64,000 nt of DNA from Sialis fuliginosa (Eukaryota; Arthropoda; Insecta; Megaloptera; Sialidae). A program made the translations under genes and the position numbers. Location of the stretch: assembly GCA_961205875.1 (NCBI GenBank), contig OY540813.1, forward strand, positions 5,923,001 to 5,987,000, given 5' to 3'. Shown piece after piece: positions 2,068-64,000 of this stretch (its first letter is position 1; each line of letters begins with the position of its first letter). The notes under the pieces are model-generated. The model saw only the letters and a list, made by a program, of their open reading frames with translations. It had not been told where the DNA came from and ran no database searches.

Positions 2068-4276
2068 GGTGCGTGTGTAAGTGATCACATCAGGCCAAAA
2101 CCACTGGTCGTATCGAAGCTATATCCATACCATATGTTCGTTTGGTGCTCCGATAAGTTTACATATTTTTTTGACCCGATAAGTGACGCTGGAGTCGAGA
2201 ATGTGTATTTATAGTCCGATTTGGCTCATATTCAAAATGTATGTTAGTTACGTGGAGAAAATGGACTCGATATGTGGCACTGGAGTCGAGATATTTACAA
2301 AAATGTGTATTTATGATCTGATTTTTAAACAAATTATTTTTGGGTAGAACAACGTTTACTGGGTCAGTTAAAACAACAATTACAACCCTCCATACGTGAC
2401 AAAGGATGCCGGGACGGGTCCGCTAGTCATATATAAAACGTTAATTTAAAAATGAATAATATAAGAACGACTTAAAAATAAGTACAAAAATTAATCGATT
2501 TGACTTTTGAACTATTCACAATGAAGAAAATAGTTTTATATTTTAAGTGTATCTACATCAGATACTCAATGTAACTGTTGCTGCAACAGCAGTTCACAAA
2601 CTTTCTGTATGTGGGACATGTGATTGATGAGGTGTCAATAACTAACTAATTGATACAGATTGTTCTTCACACTTATAGTGAGTAGACTTGCTTGCAGATG
2701 CTTTTCAAGTAGTAGTTCTTTTTACTAAACTAGTTGACTAGTATATAAATTTGTACTTAACTAGTTTTATTTTTTTGTTCATATATAATTAGAAATTATA
2801 CAGGATGTACCAGGTTCGAAGAACCAGGTACCTTTTTCGAAAACAGTTTGATAATTCAAGAATTCAATATAAAATATTCAAACAGTTGTTGACGTCAATA
2901 TTATTTTTGTCAAAATGCAGCCTTGACTTATTATTTTATTATTTTCCATAATAATAATTATTATCAGGAAATGGGAAAAATTCCATAGCGACTAAATTGT
3001 AAAAGTTTGATAAGGTATTACCTTAGACAAGGAAAGATAAAGGACAATTAACACATTACCTAGTGTTGTTACCATATCGCTCCACGAGTCATTGGCGTAT
3101 CATTTAGATTTTAAAATAAATATCAATTGTTTTGAATTATAAAATTAACTAATAATAAATGTTTTATATTTCAGTGATAATTGATTAACAGAGAAACGTC
3201 TATTTGGAACTATCATCTCTTATACAAAAATTTAATTATAATTTAAAGCATATTTGAATATTATAAATTTTCATTGGGATAATATGCGTGGAAATTACGA
3301 TAGTGACATTTAAGAAAATTAGGCGTTCCACAGATGCATATTAAAATACCCGCGTGATATGATAGATGCACCCCCCTGAAAGAAATCCTGCCGGCGCCCA
3401 TGGATATGGGTACTGTATAAAATATATGCACGGTTCTAGTAACTATAATTCTATTGATTTATGACTCAATTTCTGCATCTACAAATCTAAAATTATACGT
3501 ACAAACTTGACTTTTTCTTACAATGACCATTTATCGTGAGCAAATACAGGTAAGCGTATCTACATCTATCGGGACTGAGTTGTCTAAAGCGGGATGATTC
3601 CACTGGGAGCTCCACCGCTAGCGCTCCAGAATTCCATTATCTCCCCTAGACATATCGGCCGACTGATTTGGTTTTGGTATAAACAATTTACTTCCGGTGT
3701 CGAATCTGATATCGTTTCCGGGACTAGTTGAGTGACGCAGGTCCAGTGGGTCAGGATGTGGGGGAGGGGGGAGGTGCAACACTACCGTCCGGGCTCAGTT
3801 GTTGTTAGAAAGATAAATTGGGGGTACCTATGTTATTAACTGTTTTTTTAAGATGGATGGTTGCCTTCTAAATTAATGTGTGTTTAGAAAGTCGTTTTTT
3901 ATGTCCATGTATGGCAGTTTACTATCTCTTAAGGGAGGCTGTTATTTATTGTCGTAGAGAAAAATCTCTCCTTACGTATATTTATTTACAAATAATATAT
4001 TTGATTTAGTTACTTTTTTTCTGAGGTTTTGACTGCATATAATTCAAAATCTGTAACTGTGTCTTTTTCATTCTTATACAATTATATTAGAAAATGGCAT
4101 TTTTTTGTTATTATTAAAATCTTGTACACAATTTTAAATTTAAATTTAAATTTTAATAGTGAAAATAAAGTATTTATATTGTCAAGACAGAGACAATTCA
4201 TTTATAAGTATATTAGTAAATTAATTAACTTATTTTTTCTTCAAAATATGAAAAATAAGACAGACGTAGGTACATA
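2068..4276. other. Intergenic, no gene recognised
   Basis: No supported coding region. There is a G-rich run at 3755-3777 and a GC-richer patch at 3590-3800 without an open frame. A short hairpin lies at about 2810-2830 (GGTTC-GAA-GAACC). The 'tacaggatgtacc' at 2799 resembles the termini of TA-flanked mariner-type MITEs but no partner end is seen. Confidence 0.4.
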
Positions 4277-4465
4277 CAGTGAAATGCAGAAGTGGTCGTC
4301 CAGTTTTCATTCAAATTCGCGATTCACAAACTTAGTAGGCTCCTCTTATTTGATTATTATAATATTTAAATCATTTATCCATGTACCAAACAAAGACAGA
4401 TTTTTTGAATCTCATTGCTAGATAAAGAAATACTCTTCGTTTATAGTGCTCATATATATTTTGTA
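4277..4465 (+). mobile_element. Truncated copy of the Tc1/mariner-like MITE seen whole at 24253-24643
   Basis: The sequence from TA|CAGTGAAATGCAGAAG onward matches the copies at 36784 (+) and 24253-24643 (-) over about 190 bp. Shared blocks include 'ccagttttcattcaaattcg', 'tgattattataatatttaaa', 'caaacaaagacagat' and 'atactcttcgtttatag'. Similarity ends near 4465, so the right half is missing. The 130-codon frame at 4029-4421 runs through this repeat and is not a gene. Confidence 0.75.
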
Positions 4466-5251
4466 TTACAAAAGTTTTTGTAAGCCCTGACATGTTAAAA
4501 TCTGGTCACCCTACTCCTGAAAAATCACAATTTTGAGTTATGTTAGTGTTGCAGCTAATGAGCGATATGTACTGTAAAATGTCGTCATTAAATTAATGTA
4601 ATTAGTTCTATAAAACCAAATTCATACTTTCAACTTGCTTATAAAAACATAAACTTTTTAATAAAAAAATATTTTAACTAACTCATTTAAAATTACTGGA
4701 AATCTTTTTTTAAAGATACATCTTATTTTTCCATAATTGTTTATATATATACCTAATACAAAAAAAAATCTTTCTTTTATTCCACAGAAATATCTATTAA
4801 AATCAAAAATATTCTTTTCAATATATTTTTTTTATAAAATAATTCCTCTTTTATTGTTATAACGAAATAAATATATCTATTAATGTTTTTCATTTCACAT
4901 TACATATTCTTTGGAAGGATGAAATGACGAGATAATAAGGGTTGTTCTCAAACACAATAGAACGAAAGAATAGAATGAATATTTCTTAATAAAACGAAAT
5001 ATTTTACATGTTATGTCAACAATAGTATTTATTATATGCGGTATAAACGAAGTCTTTGCAATTTGAGATAAAATCTTTTAGAAAATTCTCAATATATTAA
5101 AATCAAAGAATAAACACACGAAGAAATATATACAAAAAGCTAAAGAAAATTTCATATCTTCCATAAGTGTGTACACTATGTACATATATTTGTATATGAG
5201 TGTGTATACACATGTTATATACAGTAGAACATCTACTCAAGCACATACATA
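4466..5251. other. Intergenic, very AT-rich, nothing recognised
   Basis: Simple AT-rich DNA with tata/tgta microsatellite-like tracts around 5160-5225. No frames or RNA genes. Confidence 0.5.
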
Positions 5252-5747
5252 AGGTACTGGCACCAGTCTTGGCCGCTTTAAGAACAAGATTTACTGTTTT
5301 TTGAGATTGATAGACTTATTTTTTGTAATTTTCATTTAGTCATGTTACTAATAAAACAAGTACCTCTTTATTAAGTGGTTTATGTTTTTTTTCTCCAGTA
5401 ATGGATATAGTAAAACCGGTAATGGACACTCAGTGATGGTCACTTGCCAATGTTTACAAAATGATAAGTACTACGACACACAAGTTATAAAATAAAGAAT
5501 TGTAACATTTTAATCAAATTAAAGCAGATGCTATGATAATATAATAATTAATAAATAGAATACACTAATAATTAGTTTAAATATCCACCATTTTGACACC
5601 CATTGGCCGATTGTTATCAAATTAAGCCGTTTTACTGTCAAATGTCTATAGATTATAATTAAATATCAACAAATATTTCTAATTTAGTACATTTAATTAA
5701 ATAAGAGTCCAACACTGGGGTTTGATCCAAGACTGGTGCCATTACTT
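5252..5747. mobile_element. Mariner-like MITE with 'ggcaccagtcttgg' inverted ends
   Basis: The left end TA|AGGTACTGGCACCAGTCTTG at 5250-5271 is mirrored by the right end, whose reverse complement reads TA|AAGTAATGGCACCAGTCTTG from 5749. The flanking TA on both sides fits a Tc1/mariner-type insertion, length 496 bp. The same left part recurs at 15949 and 63626 with the 'ctaataaaacaagtaact' block. No transposase frame is present, so it is non-autonomous. Confidence 0.75.
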
Positions 5748-14250: not shown

Positions 14251-14275
14251 ACCTTAACCACAATAAAACAATGTC

Positions 14276-14319
14276 ACTCGACACGTGTTTCGACTTCACA
14301 AGAAGTCCTCATCAGGAGC
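14276..14319 (-). ncRNA. Candidate minimal type I hammerhead ribozyme (Penelope-like)
   Basis: On the minus strand the parts occur in order. Stem I 5' strand GCTC is at 14319-14316 and core CTGATGA at 14315-14309. One extra G follows (14308). Stem II is GACTTC/GAAGTC with loop TTGT. Core GAAA is at 14291-14288. Stem III is ACAC/GTGT with no loop. The cleavage position is after C at 14280, then stem I 3' strand GAGT (14279-14276). All invariant core bases are present. Such minimal motifs with almost no stem III loop are known from Penelope-like retroelements and can act as dimers. The extra base before stem II may weaken activity. The downstream 'gacattgttttattgtgg' is shared with the copy at 17.1 kb. 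Confidence 0.6.
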
Positions 14320-15948
14320 CTAACAGTTCCAAAGTGGTTAGTTTTGGTTAAGTTTAATATAGAAAATCACAAAAGTCATAATAAATATATCAAAAAAATG
14401 CAATAAATAATCATCAAAAAATCACATAGATAATATCAAAATATCATTCAGTGCAAAATATTAGTTTTTAGTGCAAAGTATTAAAATTTATGTTTGAGTG
14501 TACAAGGTGCATGCTATAAAATTTTTAGTGAAAAGCTTTATATTAATATATAATTTAAAAGTTGAAAATCACTATACTATATAATTTGTACTATAATACC
14601 TATACCTACAGCATTATTATAAATTTAACTCATACAAAATTTTCGTATAAATTATTCAACAGTGTAAATAGGATTTGGAATTCAAAGTCGGACATATTAC
14701 CTCACTTCTATATTTATTATTAAACCATTTTCTTATAATCTCCATAAATTTTAATACAAATCCGGCTATTTTACCTCCGCTTAGCGGATCTAATCTTTCA
14801 GCAGACACCTGACAAAAATCTCTTCACTAACTATAAGTAGATTCATTTTACAATTCATGGGAAAAAGTGCTCCGATTTCGTATGTCGGATTTATCAATTA
14901 TGAAAATATTTGATTGCCATCATATTTTATTTATTTATAAAAATAAATATATCTCACTTAATTAAAAAATAATAAATTTAAAATATATGAGTCAGTTAGA
15001 TCATGGGGGTAGGCTGACAGAATTCTAGTCGTGACACCCGGCGCGGTGAACAAAAAAAATCATTATTAGTATTTACGAATTAAAAGAAATACCTTTAAAA
15101 AGGTCATTGAAACATTCCTATAAAAAATTTTCATTTTCACTTACCGAAAAAACTTATTAGGATGCACAAACAATTTAAGTCTGCTGTCAAAATTGAATCA
15201 AAAATATTTGTAAAACATACCCAATCAAAATAACGAGAAAAATGATTATTGATTGTTAAATATGTAATTAAAACGTAAAGTAGAGTTTTTCATTTTGTAA
15301 ATTAATTTGTATAGTAACTACTGTTTAAATTTGTTAACAATTATGCCCATTATTAGGTCCCCAAAACTGAAGCACTTATCGATTCTACATATTCTATTTG
15401 AAAATAAAATTTGTTTGATTTCTTATAAAAATAAAAATACGTAGCTATACAAAATGAAACAGAATTATAAAAATGAGTATTTTTGATTTAGGCTCGTATT
15501 TGTTCGATTTGAATTTTTTATACAAAAATTAAAACAATTTTTTCCGTTTGTACATTTGTACAAATTAAAATAATTATAAAAATACTTTCTAATTACAAAC
15601 CCATTACAATAGTACCTACATAATAAATCAAATTCTGTAGTATGGTTTATAACGGACGCAGAACGCCACACCTATAATTAATTCATTAATATGCACGTCG
15701 CATTTAGCGGTCTCAAAGTCGCTCGAGAATAATAAGGAATCTTTAAGAAAAAGTGGTCCATGTTGAGTCTAAAGAAAATGTTCATCTCAGGGTCTTTATC
15801 CTTTTGATTTTGTAGATATTTGAATAGAACTACGTAATTTATGTGAGATTAATTCTAGTTGTTAATTTTACGTTGAAATTGTTTAGATATTTAATTTAAA
15901 CTGGATTTTAATACTGAATTATATCCTATTTAACTATGAAAATATATA
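14320..15948. other. Intergenic, nothing recognised
   Basis: AT-rich. Bases 15035-15125 are a repeat fragment also seen at 8725-8810. The frame at 15465-15671 is low-complexity. Confidence 0.5.
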
Positions 15949-16130
15949 AGGTAAAGGCACCAGTTATGGCCACTATAAGAGCAAGTTTTCGTTTTTTTGG
16001 GTTAATGGGCTTGTTTTTTGTAATTCTCATGAACTCATGTTGCTAATAAAACAAGTAACTCTTTATTTAATCAATTTAATTAACAAAGTCCGCAAAAAAA
16101 GTTTGTTTTTTAAATTATAGCCTTTGTGAT
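15949..16130 (+). mobile_element. Left part of the 'ggcaccagttatggcc' mariner-like MITE, copy 2
   Basis: The start TA|AGGTAAAGGCACCAGTTATG (15947) matches the ends at 5252 and 63626, followed by 'ctaataaaacaagtaactct' and 'tttaatcaatttaatta'. This copy carries the uninterrupted 'acaagtaact|cttta' junction (16051-16065), which is the empty site for the insertion at 63741. No matching right end was found, so it is probably truncated. Confidence 0.7.
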
Positions 16131-16345: not shown

Positions 16346-17099
16346 TCCAGTATTTTTTTTGTTTTTTTAATTTTTTTCCGGAATTGGATACTAATATAAG
16401 ATAACAACACAAAATATATTTTGTTCATTTGTCATATGATCAACCGTTTATAGGAAATACTTATTGATACAAAAAAAGTACAGAATTTTCCTTAATATGG
16501 TTGCTTCAAATTATACTAAATAAACTTATAAAGCTAATGTATGTTTTGACATGTTCAAAACTGGATACTTTGTAAATCTGTATATTTTATAGAAATGCAA
16601 CAATTTCTTTTAAAATTATTTATTATCTAAGCAAGCTTAGCTCTGATATGTTTTCTTTTAAAAACCTCTTTAAAAACGAATAAAAATATACATGAAAATG
16701 TTTTAGTAATAATATATATAATAATAAAAACAGTATATACAAGTTATATAAGAACACTGTTGATAGTTTATAAATATATTATCAAATTCAAATATATCGC
16801 TATAGTTTGAGTATGAAATAACGTAAAACTTGTTTAGTACTACTGGTTGATGTGAGTTGAATGCACAGACTATGTTTATATCAAAACTTTAAAACGACAA
16901 ATACATGTACGCTGAAAACTACGAAACTTTATTATATTAACATATTTTTATTTTACAAACTTTCACACTATTTATTAAGTTCATAAAAATATTGCTTCAG
17001 ATATTACATTAGCAAAAATATTACAGGAAAACGGATAAACAGTGGTTTCTTAGTCAATTCAACTAAAAATATATACCTTAACCACAATAAAACAATGTC
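16346..17099. other. Intergenic, nothing recognised apart from repeat scraps
   Basis: AT-rich. Near 17025-17075 a stretch ('aaaacgga.aaac', 'ttcttagtca.tt.aacta') resembles part of the foldback element at 1870-1915. Confidence 0.4.
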
Positions 17100-17143
17100 A
17101 CTCGATACGTGTTTCTACTTCACAAGAAGTCCTCATCAAGAGT
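17100..17143 (-). ncRNA. Decayed hammerhead ribozyme motif
   Basis: This is the same arrangement as the 14.28-kb motif: stem I ACTC/GAGT, loop TTGT, GAAA core and the same 3' flank. The core reads TTGATGA, so the invariant first C is lost. The closing base of stem II is A instead of C, and stem III has a G-to-A change. It is expected to be inactive. It belongs to the same repeat as the copy at 14254-14345. Confidence 0.5.
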
Positions 17144-19161
17144 CTATAACAGTTCCAGAACCCTTGTTTTAAGATAAAATGATTGTTTTAGAACAATAAA
17201 AATATTAATTATAAATGGGTAGTATTTAATGAACAAAAAGTATTTTCTTAACGCTAGTTTATATTAACTATTGCTAAAACACAAAAAATCCTATTTAGTA
17301 TTAGAATAGTTTATTTAATAATGCTCTTCGCTATTTCTCATTTCATTTAAAATAGTACGTGTATTTGTTCTTATTGTAAATTGGGGTTTAGAGTTTACAA
17401 TAAAATATATACATAATTATTGAATTCTACTATATCAAGTTTTGAAAACAGCTTTTCCATCATAAAATAAAATAAAGAAAAACAACATACCATTCCCCCA
17501 TACCAGCATACCAATAACAGAACTGCAGACATATTTTTAGTTTTTAGAAATAAATGTTATTTCAATACTTCGCACTCAGAAACACATGTTTTTCATTAAC
17601 TTATAAAATATTTTACAATCTTGTTTTTATTGCAAATGAAAAACTAATAGATTGACAATTTATACTCCAGCAATTTTTTTAGACCCGTTCAAAGAAAGCT
17701 CCGATACTTAACTGATTGCTTAGTAGATTTTTTATTTATGAATACTTCACTTAAACAATAGGTATATTATTAATCAACTGATAATTTTCAATCGCGTTTT
17801 TATCAAAAACAAATGCCAATCATACTTGGAGAGGGTTGGTTAGAATAAATAATTGGCGATAACCTCAAAAATGTAAACAGTTTTTTCCTGGGAATGTTTA
17901 TTCAAAGAATGAATGGGTAGAGTTAAATTATAATACAGGTATCTAATAATAATAAACACTGTTATGGACTTTAGCAAAATGTTTTATATAAATAAAAGTA
18001 CATTGTTCTTGAACAATGAATGACTGTATTGAAATTTTGAAATATTGAAATATAAACAACTTTTCTTATAAATATCCTGTCATTAAAGACTATTTTCTGC
18101 TAGGGATTTTTATAAAGCTTCTAATTAGCATTTTTAATATGGATGTATTATAACATAGACTTTTATCTTTATTGATTAAAAAATCTAAATAGGCGAATAC
18201 GAATACGAGGGTTATTTTCATGCAAAAACCGAAATTATTTCAACACGTTATGGTTTCGATATATCTTAACCTAAAAGTTTAAAAAATGACGAATTTGGCA
18301 ATATTTATGGAAAAGTATATTATTATTAAAAAAATATGATTAATAAAAAATAGTTAAATCTAAAATACAGCACCCTGTAAAAGAATTACTGTTAAACATA
18401 AATACACACAAGCTAATTGTGAGTTAAAAAAACTAAAAGTTTCATCTACCAGACAAAAAATATTAATTAAAAACAAAATAAAATCCAAACTAATAGTATA
18501 AACGCGAAAGTAAAGGTATAGTTTTTTGAATTGCTGGAAATATTATTGCAGCATGTGGTTACTCGGCGAAGCAATTTCATTGCCTGCTAATAAAAAAAAT
18601 ATTGCTGGAATATAATCGCTGTCGAGTGTGGTTGGATGACAAGCAATATTATTCGTCAGCGGCTTCGTCCGCGTTATTTTCGTTTTTATGAATATTAATA
18701 TAATTTATAAAATATAAAATTATTTGTACTGTAAATCTGAAACAATTTTTTAACCTTATTGGGGTTAATTTATACCTAGGTATATCTTCTCACGGAAAAA
18801 ATTATATGTAAAACGTAATGAATGATTTTTAAGAAGTAATCGTATATCAAAAACAGTGAGATATTATTCTGGATGTGAATTAACTTGAAAAAATTACAGT
18901 TTCCCGCCCGGGGGGTCGAGTTTATTATTATACAGTGTTAAACTGTAAATAATCGACAATTTTTGATGAATTTTTCTTAAATAATTTTTTCGTGTAGTAA
19001 TTAAAAAAGTAGGAAGCCTTACGTAAGAACAAGGAAAGGGGCTAAATATTACGAACCCTTACAATGGCGAGGGGATTGTCGAAAATTTCTAATCTCATCC
19101 TTGCGTCATTAAACAAAAATAAAATTTCGTATCAAAATTTCATGCGTCTATTACCTTAAAT
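17144..19161. other. Intergenic, nothing recognised
   Basis: AT-rich without supported frames. A short GC-richer patch at 18540-18680 repeats 'attgctgga'. Bases 19154-19161 are the target duplication of the next element. Confidence 0.5.
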
Positions 19162-44489: not shown

Positions 44490-44572
44490 ATTTTCTAAAG
44501 AAGACTGGTCGAAACGTCAAGTGACATTAAAGTAAAACGCGGAATAAAACCCAATAATAAAAAGGTTATAAA
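44490..44572 (+). mobile_element. Penelope-like fragment with decayed hammerhead motif
   Basis: 'ggtcgaaacgtcaagtgaca' and 'aacgcgg.ataaaacccaat' match 63830-63880, the ribozyme-bearing insertion. Here the core reads CTAAAGA and stem II is collapsed, so a hammerhead cannot form. Confidence 0.5.
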
Positions 44573-47051
44573 ACCAAAATAGTTCACACACTAGTGACCC
44601 CATTACTGAAGGTGAATGTTGGGGAAATCCCGTAATAGCTGAGTAAGCTATGTTACTTATTCACGCATTAACGCATCTGGAGTGTTAAGAAAAATGAGTT
44701 TTTCACATTTTTTGAATAACTTATTTATTATTTGAATTACTATTAGACATATATTTTCTTATAGTACCTGTATGTACTTAATGGTGGTCATTTTCTAAAT
44801 ATCCATATTGACCTTCTCTGACTATTTTCACCATAATGTCTGATAATAAATGACCTAACTAGTCTAACTAAAAAACAACAAAACATAAAATAATATACGT
44901 CCTATGTTAAGAGAAAAATGACGACCGGAAATGGATGTTTATTTGTTATTTTCTGACGCTGATAATGAAATTATAATTAGTATTTTATAAAATATAAGAA
45001 AGTCTCGTAGTATCATTAACAGATATATAATTAATTTTTAATTTTATAAATATAATAAAAGACTGAAAATTAGATAAAAATCAAGGCATTTAAAAAGTAT
45101 TGTCTGAAACAACTTCGTAAAGAGGAACTGCGGTCCAGTGGTTGCCAAACGTTTGCTGCTTGTAAGTGTTAAATTACTTTAATTGGATGTTTATTTTATT
45201 ATTAGAAAACTGTAATTGTAAGAATTAATTAAATATTTTATAATGTCATCGCGAATACCTTTGAAGAAAGTAAAATAATTGATATGAAATATATATTACG
45301 TGAATGAATGGCTTTTAGGGTCAGTTGAATTTTTTTATGGATCTTTTTTACTTTTTTATATACACATGAAATGTCCTGTATAATAAACTTGAAATTTTAA
45401 CGGAAATACACACATTGAAGGTTCCTGAATCACGTACGATAGTTGTCTCAATTAATTTAAAAATAATTTTAATAATATGAATCTTCTAGTTATCTATGAA
45501 AATAAAAGCATTTATTATTACAACTGTTAATTAAATAGATGTATAGAAATAATAATATCTAAAACGTGTTGAACTGTTGAAATATCAAATATTAAGAAGT
45601 TTTTGACAAAAAAGCATTTTTAAATAGAAAAATTACTATATCTCAAACATTAATAAAAACAACAATTAATGTAATGTAGTTTATATTCAATTTCTTATCA
45701 GAAAGTGTTAACTTATGTAATTTCTTCTGTATCATGATGTATAAAAAAGTCTTGTGCTGATCAGTGCAATTTATTTTATTAATTGTGGAAGCTTATTGCA
45801 ATTAATATCGTGTATTAATTAAGTAGTAAAATGTATAATTAATCTACGTACTGATAAAAACACTGATTAATATATATGTAAAATTGCTCACAAGTACTTA
45901 ATTAACAAATGTAAAATTATAATTACAAAAATTAATAAGAAAGTCAAGAGTACTATTCTTGATAAAAACAATATTCAATGGCTCTTCATTGATCACTTCA
46001 TACTTTTACATTTCCCTCAAGTTCAAACCCACTTCCATTCTCTTTTTCTATCAGTAGCGCCGACTCCTATCTCTGTTCATCAACCATTACCCAAATTACA
46101 CAGTTTTGTAATTGACGGAAAAGAGACTGAAAGAAAGAGAGGGACGACAATACACAAGTCGAGGTGTGATTGCTTTTTCCACCCGTTGAACCTCCACCGC
46201 CTTCTTAGATTTCGGCATGAATTGCTTTATTTCGTTTTTGTTCTAGACTGCGTTTAAAATTGAAACGTTTAAGTTCGTTTTTATAACGCCCTGTCAGATT
46301 ATTCACAGCTCATTTTGGATACGCTCTGAGATATTTGGGGGATTTGCAACCGTGAGGTAGATTAAGGCAATGCGATTCAACGCTGATGAGATTGGGAAGT
46401 TTATTTGTATTTTTGGCTTTCTTTGTTCTTATGAGATTTCGGTTTTTAACTATAGGTAAATAGGTATTTATATTTATATAGTTATGAGATTAATATTTAA
46501 CATTATTTTCTATGTATAAATATTATTATTCGGAAGTTGTTTTATGCCAAAAGTGTATTTAGGATATTTTTGAGGAGAAACAGAACAAAACCGGATAAAT
46601 CAATTTTTGCAAATTTTATAGGAGAGGTTAAAATGTATCTACCTTATTTTTATGTACTTTTTTTAAAACTTTTGAGTACCAAATAAACTTTTTTTGTCTT
46701 TTTATACTGGATTTGTTAGCTTTTGTTCCGAGACACCTTTTTGAAGCCATTTTTAAAGGAGTCTTAGCAATATTTGATCCGTGATTTTTAATCAGTCGAT
46801 CCGGCGATGGTTGAAAATGCCGAATCGAAAAAAATCATCTCTGTTCAAAATGGATTTATCAAGTTTTGTTCTGCTGCTCTTCATTTATAAATGCATTATT
46901 AATTAGTATATTTTAATGTACATTAATTAATTAAATCAAGAATACTTACATATTTATTATACATAAGTATTATAAATTCCAGGTTATTTTTAAAAATGTA
47001 AAAAAATATTTTATTATAAATTAAACAATTTTAACGCTTTAATCATATGCA
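44573..47051. other. Intergenic, nothing recognised
   Basis: AT-rich. The GC-richer stretch at 46000-46230 has no open frame. Immediately downstream of the repeat-protein gene. Confidence 0.45.
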
Positions 47052-47225: not shown

Positions 47226-50200
47226 TTATATATTATGTTGATGATGGTGTTGTTCCCCTTGGTCTTCATAGATTTCTTTAACTTCGTGGTGGTTTGGTTG
47301 TGTATGATAGGGGATTCCTACAAGCATTTTTACTGGGTAATAAACAGGATGTTCATAGGGGAAAGGGACCTTCTTTACAACCTCATACGGCTTATCTACA
47401 GGATATTTTACAGCATAAGGAACGGGTTTTTCAACAGTGTAAGGAATCTTCTTTTCAATATAATACGGTTTTGGTACGTATACTTTAACAGGGTAATGGA
47501 ACGGTTTCTGAACTTCAACTGGGTACGGCCTGTCTACTGGTACTTTAACATTATATGGTACTAGTTTTTCTACAGTGTACGGTATTTTCTTTTCAACGGT
47601 AACGTGGTACGGTTTTGGGATGTAAACAGGGTAAGGTTTATCAACTGGAACTTTGACTTCATATGGTACTTTCTTCTCTACATGATACGGGTGTGGTACT
47701 GGTACTTCAACTTTAACTTTGTACGGTATCTTCTTTTCAACGTAGTACGGTTGCGGTACATGTACTTTTACTGGGTATGGTACTTTTTTCTCGACAGTGT
47801 ATGGTTTTGGTACAGAAATCTTTACTTCGTATGGTCTATTAACGGGAACTTTTACTGTATATGGAACCTTTTTGTAGACATGATATGGTTTTGGAACGTA
47901 ATAAGGAACTTTAATGTATTCTTTAACAGGGTAAGGTACTTTCTTTTCTACGTAATAAGGCTTACCATATGGAACCTTTACAGGGTATGGGACTTTCTTT
48001 GTTACGGTATAAGGAATCTTTTTCTCAACTGTATACGGTACAGGCACCTTCTTTTCAATAATAATAGTTTTAATCTCTTCTTTGATTGGTTTGTGCTTAT
48101 TAAATTCCCATGTAAGTGCTTCAGTATGCTGTTCTTGTGGTTCATGATGCTCATGGGTTTCTTGCTGTTCAAAGTTATGGTTACTATGGGTTGTTTCAAA
48201 ATGAGGTGTACTAATTGCTGTCCATCCATTATCCAAAAAGTTTTTACCATCTAAATTATGACTGTAGTCATTTGTAAGTCCAGCTTGAGCTAAACCTTGG
48301 CTTGTGAGATCGTCAATTGATACAGAATGCGTTTGGTGTTCTTGTAAAGCTTCTCCACCATCGTGATAAGGGATTGGAAGTGATGACTTAAAGTCATGTT
48401 CGTTGTATGGAATAGAAGATTTGAATTCTTCAGTATTTAAGACTCCAGTTAAATCTATAACACTTGGTTGTCCGTAGTTACTGACATGTCCTTCACCGTA
48501 AGATGTAGGTATTTTCACGTTTTCATAGTTGTTGTGCTGAAGTGGAGACGCATGTTCTGCGTAGCCGTAATTCGAGACGACTAAGTTTGGTTCGACGTGA
48601 TTTTCAGGGATGTCACCGTGGGTTTTGTAATCGCCTAAGCCCCCGGCTGCGGGTGCTGTGAAACCACGTTTCTCATGTTTTTTGTTTATCAACTTGCTAG
48701 CGACTAACTTTTCGTTTTTTGCTTGTTCTTTTGGCTGTTCATTGAGAGCTACTGCTAATGCAATAACTGTGAAGAATATCTGTAAAAATGAAGTTATTTA
48801 TTTTTAATAGTTTCAATTTTTAAAATTCGATCTTATTTCTATAAAGTGGCTATAAGATATTGTATTTTGATAAATCATTTGATAGCTATTGGCTTGTAAA
48901 TTACTAATTAAATCAAGCATTTTAATTGTTTTTATCGATATGTAGTTTCAAGCAGCAAACAGTTTATAAAAAATATTAATTATTTTATCGTTTCTGTTAA
49001 TTTCCAAGTATAGCTTAAGAAAGGTTTATTCTAAAACTATTTAAAGTTATTTATTAAGTAAAATATTTACAAAAATAAGGAAGTGATAGTGGTCGGTTTG
49101 ACGTAAGTTTATTTTAAAATCGTAAACAACCAAGGTATCAAAATCATTTACGCTCATATTGGGTCACGACGTGATTTGAAAAATTAATAGCCCACACCTA
49201 GCTTTAATATAGATAACGGCCAATCAGCTTAATAACCACGGTGTTAAACGACAGATAGTAATCTTAATTTTTTTATTAATATCTGTATGTAATTTTACAC
49301 TACCAAATATAAATTTAACAAAAAAAATCATAAATTTTTCTTTTACATTTTCCTTTCACTTTCTTGTTTTTGCTGTTCCATACAAAATACAAACAATTCC
49401 TATTGAAAAGAATAACTGATCTCTAAACGATATAAAATACTTTTTTTGGTTAAAATACCAGCAATCATATATATGTTATGTATCATTATCGATTCTTATA
49501 TCACAAAACATGTATGTATAATGTAATCTGACTTTCAATACCTCTTACGCACGAGTGAACAGAAAAAAAGAGAATACATAAAAAGATTAAAAAGATACGC
49601 TTCGGTTATTGTCACGTACTTTTTTCTAAACATCTACTCTAAATACAGTTTAACATCATTGTGTTTATGTTTACAGGTAACATGATAAAACCAATTATAT
49701 TTACGCAAATAAGTTATAATTTATTTCGCTTTCACGATTTAACAAAAAAATTTATACGTATGTATTTTGTGTCTGTTTATATTTGTCAAGGTTGAGATCA
49801 CGCATATGTTATATTTAATTCATTTGGTTGAAGATGAACAATGTCCGCCATGTTAATGTATCTTATTATTATTGTAATTGCTGTTATTATTATAGCATTT
49901 ATATTTTAGGTTACCAAAAGAATAAAACTTATTCTGATGTTTGTAGTTTTTTAACTGACTTCATAAATAGGAGGAGGTTCTCAATTCGACAGTATATATA
50001 TTTTTTTGTATATCGGGCATAACTCCGACAAATATGAACCGATTTGGACGATTTTTGGTTGTTTGAAAGGGTCTACTCTCGAGGTGATCTCATATAAATT
50101 TTATCAAAATTTGACCATGGTCTTTGAAGATACGTTACTCAGAAGGAAAAAATAAAAAACTTTTTGAGAAAAAAATAAAACCGACTTCAAAAACTAAAAA

Positions 50201-62510: not shown

Positions 62511-63625
62511 AAATCCAGGACGTAACAAACGCAATTTTCTAACTGTAGTATATCCCAAAGGTTCTTGTGTACATTTCTAGGTTTTTCTCGACACATCTCT
62601 GTCAGAGTTGATTTATACGAGCATCATTCAGTGACTCACGTTGAGGGACCTTGCATGTTCGCGACCACTGTTCCGGCACCGCCTATTGACGGTCACCATA
62701 AATGATTGAAACTTTTTGCTGTCTCCCTTTACAACAACCTGAAATGGAACATCTAATTTTCTTTTTATCAAGCTATCTCAGTTTTTTTTTAAAAACGATG
62801 TTAGAGTAAATCTATTTTCTTTCATTAGTGTTATGGTTCAGTTTTTGTGTGTGGGTTTTCTTATACAGGTTAAATCTGATAGGGAATTGATGTTTAGATT
62901 GAATTTAATGCTATATATCCTTTTCATTTTTATAAAATAACAATTTTCAGCTATTATATTTTTATTATTGTGTTTTGCGGAGATTTTATATAATGCAGGC
63001 TTTTATTTTATTATCTTTATATCATTTTTCTTTCTTTCTAGAATATACTTAATAAGAGATTTTTAGTTTTAAATTAAACAAAGTATAGCTTCTATACATT
63101 ACATTGTTACATTATGAAAATTTGCCGATTGGATATTTTAAAATTTCGAATCGTACATATATATATTGATCAAGAATCAATTTTACTATGTGCTTATTAT
63201 TTTCTCCCAGAAAATATCAACAATAAAGTTTATAATTCTATAACGCATACAATTTTTTAATTATTTATGAATTGAAGAGATAAAACCTTTAATATACACA
63301 AAAAGCAGGTTTGTTATGAAAATTCCCTTAATTTACTGTAACAAAACACGTGACCTTTGAACAGCATAGATAATTAAATTGAATTAATACATTAACCAAA
63401 TATTTTATAACACTGGGGCAATTATACAAAAGGTAAGCCCGTGCTTCTTGTACGCAATTAGTCAGCAGGTGGTAAAGGATTTTCGTCGACATAAATGGCG
63501 GATTAACTTGGAACCTACTGCCAGACAGTATCATCTTTCTAATGCTAAAACAATCACAACGCTCCACATGTATTGTATAAGAGAGCAGTGGCGGCTCGTG
63601 AAAAAAAGAAACAGAAATCTGTATA
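62511..63625. other. Intergenic, nothing recognised except a hAT-like end at 63588
   Basis: 'gcagtggcggctcgtg' at 63587 is a common transposon terminus but no partner was found. The frames at 63328-63567 and 63448-63726 cross repeats. Confidence 0.4.
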
Positions 63626-63740
63626 AAGCAAAGGCACCAGTTATGGCCGCTATAAGAACAAGTTTTCGTTGTTTTTTTGGATTAATGGGTTTGTTTTTTG
63701 TAATTCTCATGAATTCATGTTACTAATAAAACAAGTAACT

Positions 63741-63891
63741 AATTCTAGCAAACGTCAACGCTTATTTAATTAAGCAGCTACACCTTCTGTACTCAACACT
63801 TCACTTCTGAAGACGACCACGAGATGTTGGTCGAAACGTCAAGTGACAATATAGTGCAACGCGGTATACAACCCAATAATCAAATGTTTAT
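63741..63891 (+). mobile_element. Short Penelope-like (ribozyme-bearing) insertion with 10-bp target duplication
   Basis: It is flanked by 'acaagtaact' (63731-63740) and 'acaagtaatt' (63892-63901), one mismatch. The uninterrupted target is present at 16051-16065. The 151-bp insert contains a complete hammerhead motif and the tail 'aacgcggtatacaacccaat', also seen at 44530-44560. There is no reverse transcriptase, so it is a very truncated or non-autonomous copy. Confidence 0.7.
63802..63845 (+). ncRNA. Candidate minimal type I hammerhead ribozyme
   Basis: Stem I CACTT/AAGTG (63802-63806 with 63841-63845) is a perfect 5-bp helix. The core is CTGAAGA (63807-63813), where the only departure from CUGAUGA is at the tolerant position 7. 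One extra C follows (63814). Stem II is GACCA/TGGTC with an 8-base loop. Core GAAA is at 63833-63836. Stem III is only AC/GT. The cleavage position is after C63840. This minimal form with nearly no stem III is characteristic of Penelope-like elements, where ribozymes may act as dimers. Confidence 0.65.
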
Positions 63892-64000
63892 ACAAGTAAT
63901 TTTTTATTTAATCAATTTAATTACCAATGTCCGCAAATATAATTTTAAAATATAGTTTTTTCTCCAGTAATGGCAAAGGTAAAACCAGTAATAATAAATA

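What the first reader, a model, noticed from the sequence alone, without database searches (positions are those of the whole stretch)
63802..63845. Complete minimal hammerhead ribozyme inside a dated insertion
All conserved hammerhead positions and a perfect stem I are present, in a 151-bp insert flanked by a 10-bp target duplication. The host repeat at 15949 shows the empty site. This ties the ribozyme to a mobile unit far smaller than a Penelope element, so it may mark a ribozyme-carrying non-autonomous family.
Basis: partly seen in the sequence, partly recalled or inferred. Interest (0 to 1): 0.75.

Follow-up and report, generated by a model that had tools for sequence, protein, structure and literature searches.

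The report
Penelope retrotransposon fragment carrying a ribozyme
The small ribozyme-bearing insert is the cut-off end of a known kind of jumping gene (a Penelope-like retrotransposon), not a new mobile family, but its copies in this genome show an orderly pattern of how such elements insert themselves.

Summary
A hammerhead core (63801-63846) lies in a 151-bp insert (63741-63891) with a 10-bp, 9/10-identical target duplication; a related repeat near 15949 shows the empty site. Helix III is absent and one unpaired base follows A9; Rfam does not see it. The proposed small non-autonomous family is not supported. Longer relatives in the same genome run into RT/GIY-YIG coding sequence, and L074 joins such a frame to a 95%-identical ribozyme region: the insert is a 5'-truncated Penelope-like element (PLE). 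3' ends fall at two sites about 31 nt apart (the known PLE "tail"); 5' ends are dispersed.

Beyond the finding: 37 of 52 insertions examined are head-to-head inverted pairs. In all 33 with both outer ends resolved (29 by the preset rule, 4 on recheck), one arm is short and the other carries the tail; 22 of the 29 share an exact duplication of at least 9 bp. A sister lineage agrees (3 of 3 resolved). This fits target-primed reverse transcription from both DNA ends, each at a different RNA site. 75 of 86 arms span the ribozyme's cut site and 1 of 86 starts at it, so cleavage does not set insert ends.

The parts
63731..63740 (.). left copy of target duplication (ACAAGTAACT)
63741..63891 (+). 151-bp insert: 5'-truncated 3' end of a Penelope-like element (pseudo-LTR ending at the short 3' site); similarity to the family runs on to 63895
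63801..63846 (+). type I hammerhead-like motif without helix III; predicted cut after 63840
63814..63814 (+). unpaired base after A9: C here, A in 63 of 65 full-length family motifs; in the predicted fold this C pairs with G12
63824..63895 (+). presumed first 24 codons of the PLE open reading frame; ATG lies in loop II (MLVETSSDNIVQRGIQPNNQMFIQ)
   Evidence: read; the same frame in copies; continuation into an RT frame not shown
63892..63901 (.). right copy of target duplication (ACAAGTAATT); first 4 bases also belong to the element end
63622..63990 (.). host dispersed repeat that was hit (other copies near 5248-5365 and 15945-16104)
   Evidence: (families D3, D5, D18)
44506..44573 (+). second, more damaged fragment of the same PLE family; by eye it begins some 12 nt earlier with the ribozyme core and has lost loop II

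Best explanation
The insert is the 3' pseudo-LTR of a canonical (GIY-YIG) Penelope-like retrotransposon, copied by target-primed reverse transcription and truncated at its 5' end. The endonuclease opens the target with a stagger of roughly 9-15 bp; a target 3' end primes cDNA inside the element RNA, some tens of bases into the ORF, at one of two sites (short, or about 31 nt further, giving the 'tail'). Usually the other target 3' end primes a second cDNA at the other site, giving head-to-head inverted arms; here only one short-type arm is seen. The hammerhead sits in this stretch because it overlaps the ORF start; it is probably weak or protein-assisted, and the RNA that was copied here was not cut by it (or was rejoined). 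Shown: family membership, end structure, duplication, one-short/one-tail pattern in the places examined. Inferred: two independent primings, order of strands, role of the ribozyme.
For: RT-GIY-YIG frame directly upstream of a 95%-identical ribozyme region in L074; its 303-aa frame is 50% identical over 295 residues to the L078 frame, which matches RVT_1 at 1.1e-10. 3' ends at two sites. 37 of 52 places are inverted pairs (36, L020 added); 29 of 29 pairs resolved by the preset rule are short+tail, and so are the 4 more resolved on recheck. 22 of the 29 have an exact duplication of 9 bp or more around the pair. Sister lineage: 3 of 3 resolved pairs short+tail. 5' ends dispersed; 75 of 86 arms have one match spanning the cut site, 1 of 86 starts within 1 nt of it. 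Published: PLE ribozymes usually lack helix III (PMC6155905, passages); the Anolis PLE protein cuts and extends both strands, starts internally at two sites that explain the 'tail', and its ribozyme cleaves only with protein and is not needed for insertion in vitro (PMC11167929, section 3).
Against: Pfam does not recognise the family's own 303-aa frame and its GIY-YIG matches are below cut-off; the assignment leans on the 50%-identical relative. No copy of this subfamily with a full open frame was seen (best 303 aa; 150 of 706 candidates scored). 15 of 52 places show one arm only (9 tail, 6 short), so two-sided priming is not universal or one arm is too short or too far off to see. 4 pairs stay unresolved: in L013, L034 and L092 the second arm reaches neither end, in L041 an arm stops between the two sites. 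7 of the 29 pairs have no clear duplication.
Confidence: 0.93

Rival explanations
1. A discrete non-autonomous ribozyme-carrying family of about 150 bp, moved in trans by PLE enzymes.
For: 11 of 52 places have the 5' end of the longest arm within 953-964 of the reference, the zone of this insert; the short 3' end is shared.
Against: 43 distinct 5' positions of 52; many copies run further upstream in register into the endonuclease gene; the first query began at that zone, which enriches for it.
Confidence: 0.04
2. An animal retrozyme: tandem 150-450 bp repeats with a type I hammerhead spreading through circular RNA.
For: Size and ribozyme type are similar (PMC7229834, passages).
Against: In the strict motif scan of L001-L080 only L003 holds two motifs on one strand, and its second is a different type; pairs are inverted, not tandem; copies lead into PLE coding sequence.
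Confidence: 0.02
3. The inverted pairs come from self-priming (snap-back) of one nucleic acid strand, as proposed for rotifer Penelope elements (PMC3846280, passages), rather than from two target-primed events.
For: Head-to-head arrangement; palindromes reported at such junctions in that paper.
Against: A simple snap-back copy would repeat the same outer end, yet all resolved pairs have two different outer ends (29 of 29, 4 of 4); inner ends of the two arms are uncorrelated (27 pairs, Spearman -0.10, p 0.63; median distance 76 against 86 after shuffling, p 0.30).
Confidence: 0.1

Closest known systems
Penelope/Poseidon-type PLEs (Anolis PAc, PMC11167929; rotifer Pen families, PMC3846280)
   Same: RT + GIY-YIG frame, pseudo-LTR overlapping the first codons, ribozyme at the ORF start (PAc), optional 30-40 bp tail, inverted pseudo-LTRs, short duplications (8-10 bp in the rotifer passages seen; 9-15 bp exact here), AT-rich targets
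   Different: ATG lies in loop II here (in PAc at the start of stem II); the short/tail partition is counted here and without exception among resolved pairs, whereas the rotifer paper says the tail is optionally on one of the inverted pLTRs and the Anolis paper saw no strand difference in start site in vitro
Minimal type I hammerhead of PLEs and Terminons
   Same: core and stems I/II, no helix III
   Different: one extra unpaired base between A9 and stem II in this family and its sister; whether published PLE motifs share it was not checked (the 2014 paper on PLE hammerheads is not held)
Animal non-LTR retrozymes (PMC7229834)
   Same: type I hammerhead on a short mobile unit
   Different: not tandem and not a unit with fixed ends; helix III absent

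Membership tests
Penelope-like element | RT and GIY-YIG endonuclease in one frame linked to this 3' end | tested here: met
   L074 frame 4154-5062 then ribozyme region 5079-5233, 95% identical to the insert; 50% identical to the L078 frame with RVT_1 1.1e-10 and GIY-YIG 2e-4, the latter just under cut-off. Pfam alone: no hit on L074.
Penelope-like element | optional 30-40 bp 3' tail | tested here: met
   two 3' ends about 31 nt apart in reference coordinates; one arm (L041) stops between them
Penelope-like element | inverted pseudo-LTR arms and target duplication | tested here: met
   37 of 52 places inverted pairs; exact duplication of 9 bp or more in 22 of 29 resolved pairs. The window insert itself has one arm only.
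Penelope-like element | ORF begins within or next to the ribozyme and runs into RT | tested here: inconclusive
   ATG and open frame through the short end in copies, and through the tail in L027; no full-length copy read
Hammerhead ribozyme type I | conserved core nucleotides and stems I and II | tested here: met
   core intact in 51 of 65 full-length family motifs
Hammerhead ribozyme type I | helix III and match to the Rfam model | tested here: not met
   no hit at gathering or E up to 10; lack of helix III is usual in PLE motifs
Hammerhead ribozyme type I | self-cleavage | not testable with these tools
   family version (L004) does not fold to the hammerhead as its lowest-energy structure; the window copy does, but by pairing C63814 with G12
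Animal retrozyme | head-to-tail tandem monomers with the ribozyme | tested here: not met
   (L001-L080 only)
Separate non-autonomous family | copies share both ends | tested here: not met
   5' ends at 43 positions of 52 places

The most novel reading that the evidence does not exclude
PLE integration is two-sided and strictly asymmetric: the two 3' overhangs of one staggered break each prime reverse transcription, one always at the short site and one always at the tail site. The duplication at the short side tends to begin A(C/T)AAT, i.e. ATTRT on the priming strand, which matches the RNA at that start site and the ATT motif cut by the Anolis enzyme, while the tail side shows no such motif by eye. 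Cleavage specificity, or pairing of the primer with the RNA, would then assign each DNA end to its own start site, and the 'tail' is the footprint of the other priming.
Probability: 0.55. Interest if true: 0.6.

Novelty: new member of a known kind. Interest (0 to 1): 0.42.

Why it matters
As a ribozyme on a tiny mobile unit it is ordinary: a truncated Penelope-like element. The useful part is the insertion anatomy. How PLEs make inverted, tailed copies has been unsettled (self-priming proposed in 2013, cutting and extension of both strands shown in vitro in 2024). A set of natural insertions in which every resolved pair has one short and one tailed arm is a sharp, testable constraint, and the copies also indicate that ribozyme cleavage does not define the ends of inserted DNA.

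Tried and rejected
Rfam scanning did not recover the motif. Pfam GIY-YIG on the genome gave only 2 matches, so the family was followed with its own endonuclease fragment instead. tblastn of that fragment in the plasmid collection gave nothing (not expected to). A PDB sequence search gave only weak hits, the best to LuxS, discarded as chance. The idea of a fixed transcription start behind the 953-964 cluster of 5' ends was not pursued: the sampling is biased towards it. Correlated inner ends (self-priming) were tested and not found. Two more sister-lineage stretches (L095, L096) held no inverted arm. Genome-wide searches with the minus-strand motif at 14315 and with the sister lineage did not complete, nor was a search with the Rfam hammerhead family.

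Limits of counts. One search joined matches no more than 40 bp apart; on rereading for this report I checked its 7 unresolved pairs plus L020 and L037, not the other single-arm places. L035 (its stretch was cut; read in L048), L020 (arms 600 bp apart) and L009 and L021 (second arm split by later insertions) came out as short+tail; L013, L034, L041 and L092 stayed unresolved. Some second arms are only about 16 nt (L005, L015, L023); L023 has no clear duplication to back it. In one search, 24 places were given: 22 of the 29 pairs plus L001 and L008; L004 was dropped for lack of an anchor and its target agrees poorly with A(Y)AAT. The per-site counts there carry some bias, since the longest common substring tends to extend into matching ends; the tail-side statement is by eye, not tested. 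The 5'-end values of L020 and L037 are too short (L037's stretch was cut).

Full report
What is in the window. The hammerhead-like motif is real. Stem I is 6 bp, stem II 4 bp, all core positions are present, helix III is absent and one unpaired base separates A9 from stem II. It lies in 151 bp between a 10-bp duplication (9 of 10 identical; ACAA of it is also the element's end). A relative of the host repeat near 15949 has no insert. Chance is not an explanation: 0 hits in 60 simulated windows with the same descriptor. Rfam misses it.

What it belongs to. The window lies in a 392-Mb genome (20 contigs; unnamed). The insert as query gave 451 first-look candidates, of which 40 were scored, with 50 matches listed. 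Copies share the 3' part but extend 5' by different lengths. Upstream sequence of L018 and L029, and in broken frames L008 and L027, encodes a GIY-YIG-like stretch (AGIYEISCNCGSVYIGQTGRS; the likeness to PLE endonucleases is recalled). Pfam support for such pieces is weak: of 5 given, 2 match GIY_YIG_2 below cut-off (best 0.0034), 2 nothing, 1 an unrelated family. A genome search with one such fragment gave 151 matches, 150 of 706 candidates scored. L074 has a 303-aa frame with RYVDDTF and the endonuclease, followed at once by a ribozyme region 95% identical to the insert. Pfam finds nothing in that frame, but it is 50% identical over 295 residues to the L078 frame, which matches RVT_1 (1.1e-10) and GIY-YIG (2e-4, just below cut-off). 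So the insert is a truncated Penelope-like element. No complete frame of this subfamily was seen; other PLE lineages in the genome have frames near 1,000 aa, one of them checked and matching RVT_1 (L076).

Ribozyme. In the 52 places 67 motif-sized copies were found, 65 of full length; 51 of 65 keep all core bases; the base after A9 is A in 63 and C in 2, one of the two being the window copy. Two sister-lineage loci (L065, L071) keep the core and most of stem I but have stem II GACTC/GAGTC instead of GACC/GGTC, so one pair has changed on both sides and one is added; most other sister copies printed are damaged in the motif. ATG in loop II opens a frame that runs through the short end (L008, L027, L029) and the tail (L027), so coding constraint overlaps the motif and the stem II change is not pure evidence for RNA structure. 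The lowest-energy fold of the family version is not a hammerhead. In the Anolis element the ribozyme cleaved only with protein and was not needed for insertion (PMC11167929, section 3).

Ends and mechanism. I scored 52 places: 38 from the first query and 14 new ones from a second, shorter query of which again 40 of 452 candidates were scored (L022 left out as the same place as L012, L033 as that of L020). Outer 3' ends fall at two sites, the short one varying by a few bases. By the preset rule 36 places are head-to-head inverted pairs; 29 have both outer ends resolved and all 29 are one short, one tail; 7 were unresolved and 16 places had one arm. On recheck L020 proved to be a pair with its arms about 600 bp apart, and L009, L021 and L035 (read in L048) could be resolved; all four are short+tail. 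That makes 37 pairs, 33 of 33 resolved being mixed, 4 unresolved (L013, L034, L041, L092) and 15 single (9 tail, 6 short). An exact duplication of at least 9 bp flanks 22 of the first 29 pairs, so each of those is one insertion event. Three resolved sister-lineage pairs (L047, L065, L071) are also short+tail, a fourth (L057) is unresolved; their duplications, read by eye, are about 12-14 bp. If ends were drawn independently at about one half each, 29 of 29 mixed pairs would have a probability near 2e-9 (arithmetic). Inner ends of the arms are uncorrelated (27 pairs). The simplest reading is two target-primed events per break, each at its own start site. The rotifer paper describes the tail as optionally present at one of the inverted pLTRs and favours self-priming (PMC3846280, passages); the Anolis paper reports cutting and extension of both strands and two start sites, with no strand difference. 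A strict rule was not seen in the passages and sections read, nor in the listings of searches; older subscription papers were not available.

Target. In 23 of 24 places examined, the copy of the duplication away from the short end, opposite the element's ACAATT, reads mostly A(C/T)AAT (A 21, C 8, A 18, A 21, T 17, T 9 of 23 match). The 24th (L004) agrees poorly. This resembles the ATT preference of the Anolis enzyme and may also reflect pairing with the RNA; the two cannot be told apart here. The window insert (ACAAGT) fits.

Ribozyme and insertion. Of 86 arms with a body match, 79 have their 5' end upstream of the cut site and 75 have one match spanning it; 1 starts within 1 nt of it. The templates were therefore mostly uncut at this ribozyme, or rejoined.

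Verdict. Observation confirmed; non-autonomous family not supported; ordinary as an element, with a noteworthy insertion pattern.

Noticed in passing
window 14251-14322 (-) and 17075-17146 (-): Two 94%-identical copies of a different hammerhead-like motif with a CACGTG-type helix III; the first scores 17.7 bits (E 0.085, below gathering) with Rfam Hammerhead_1. Their similarity stops alike after GGTTAAGGT, suggesting another PLE-type 3' end; the second copy has core damage.
   Followed up: partly
L003 near 839 (-): Another hammerhead-like motif of the CACGTG kind in the flank of a family copy.
   Followed up: no
window 63731-63740 and L005 around 1360-1400: Two insertions of this family (window insert and L005) hit nearly the same spot (AACAAGTA.CT) of what looks like the same host dispersed repeat.
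   Followed up: partly
L047/L080 beside L021: An inverted pair of the sister PLE lineage sits inside one arm of a copy of this family (nested insertion).
   Followed up: partly
L076 397-3414 and L077 1046-4042: Other PLE lineages with open frames of 1006 and 999 aa (the first with RVT_1 and a sub-threshold GIY-YIG match).
   Followed up: no
window 47226-48797 (-): Open frame of 523 aa rich in KKVPYPVKV-like repeats, resembling insect cuticle-type proteins (recalled).
   Followed up: no
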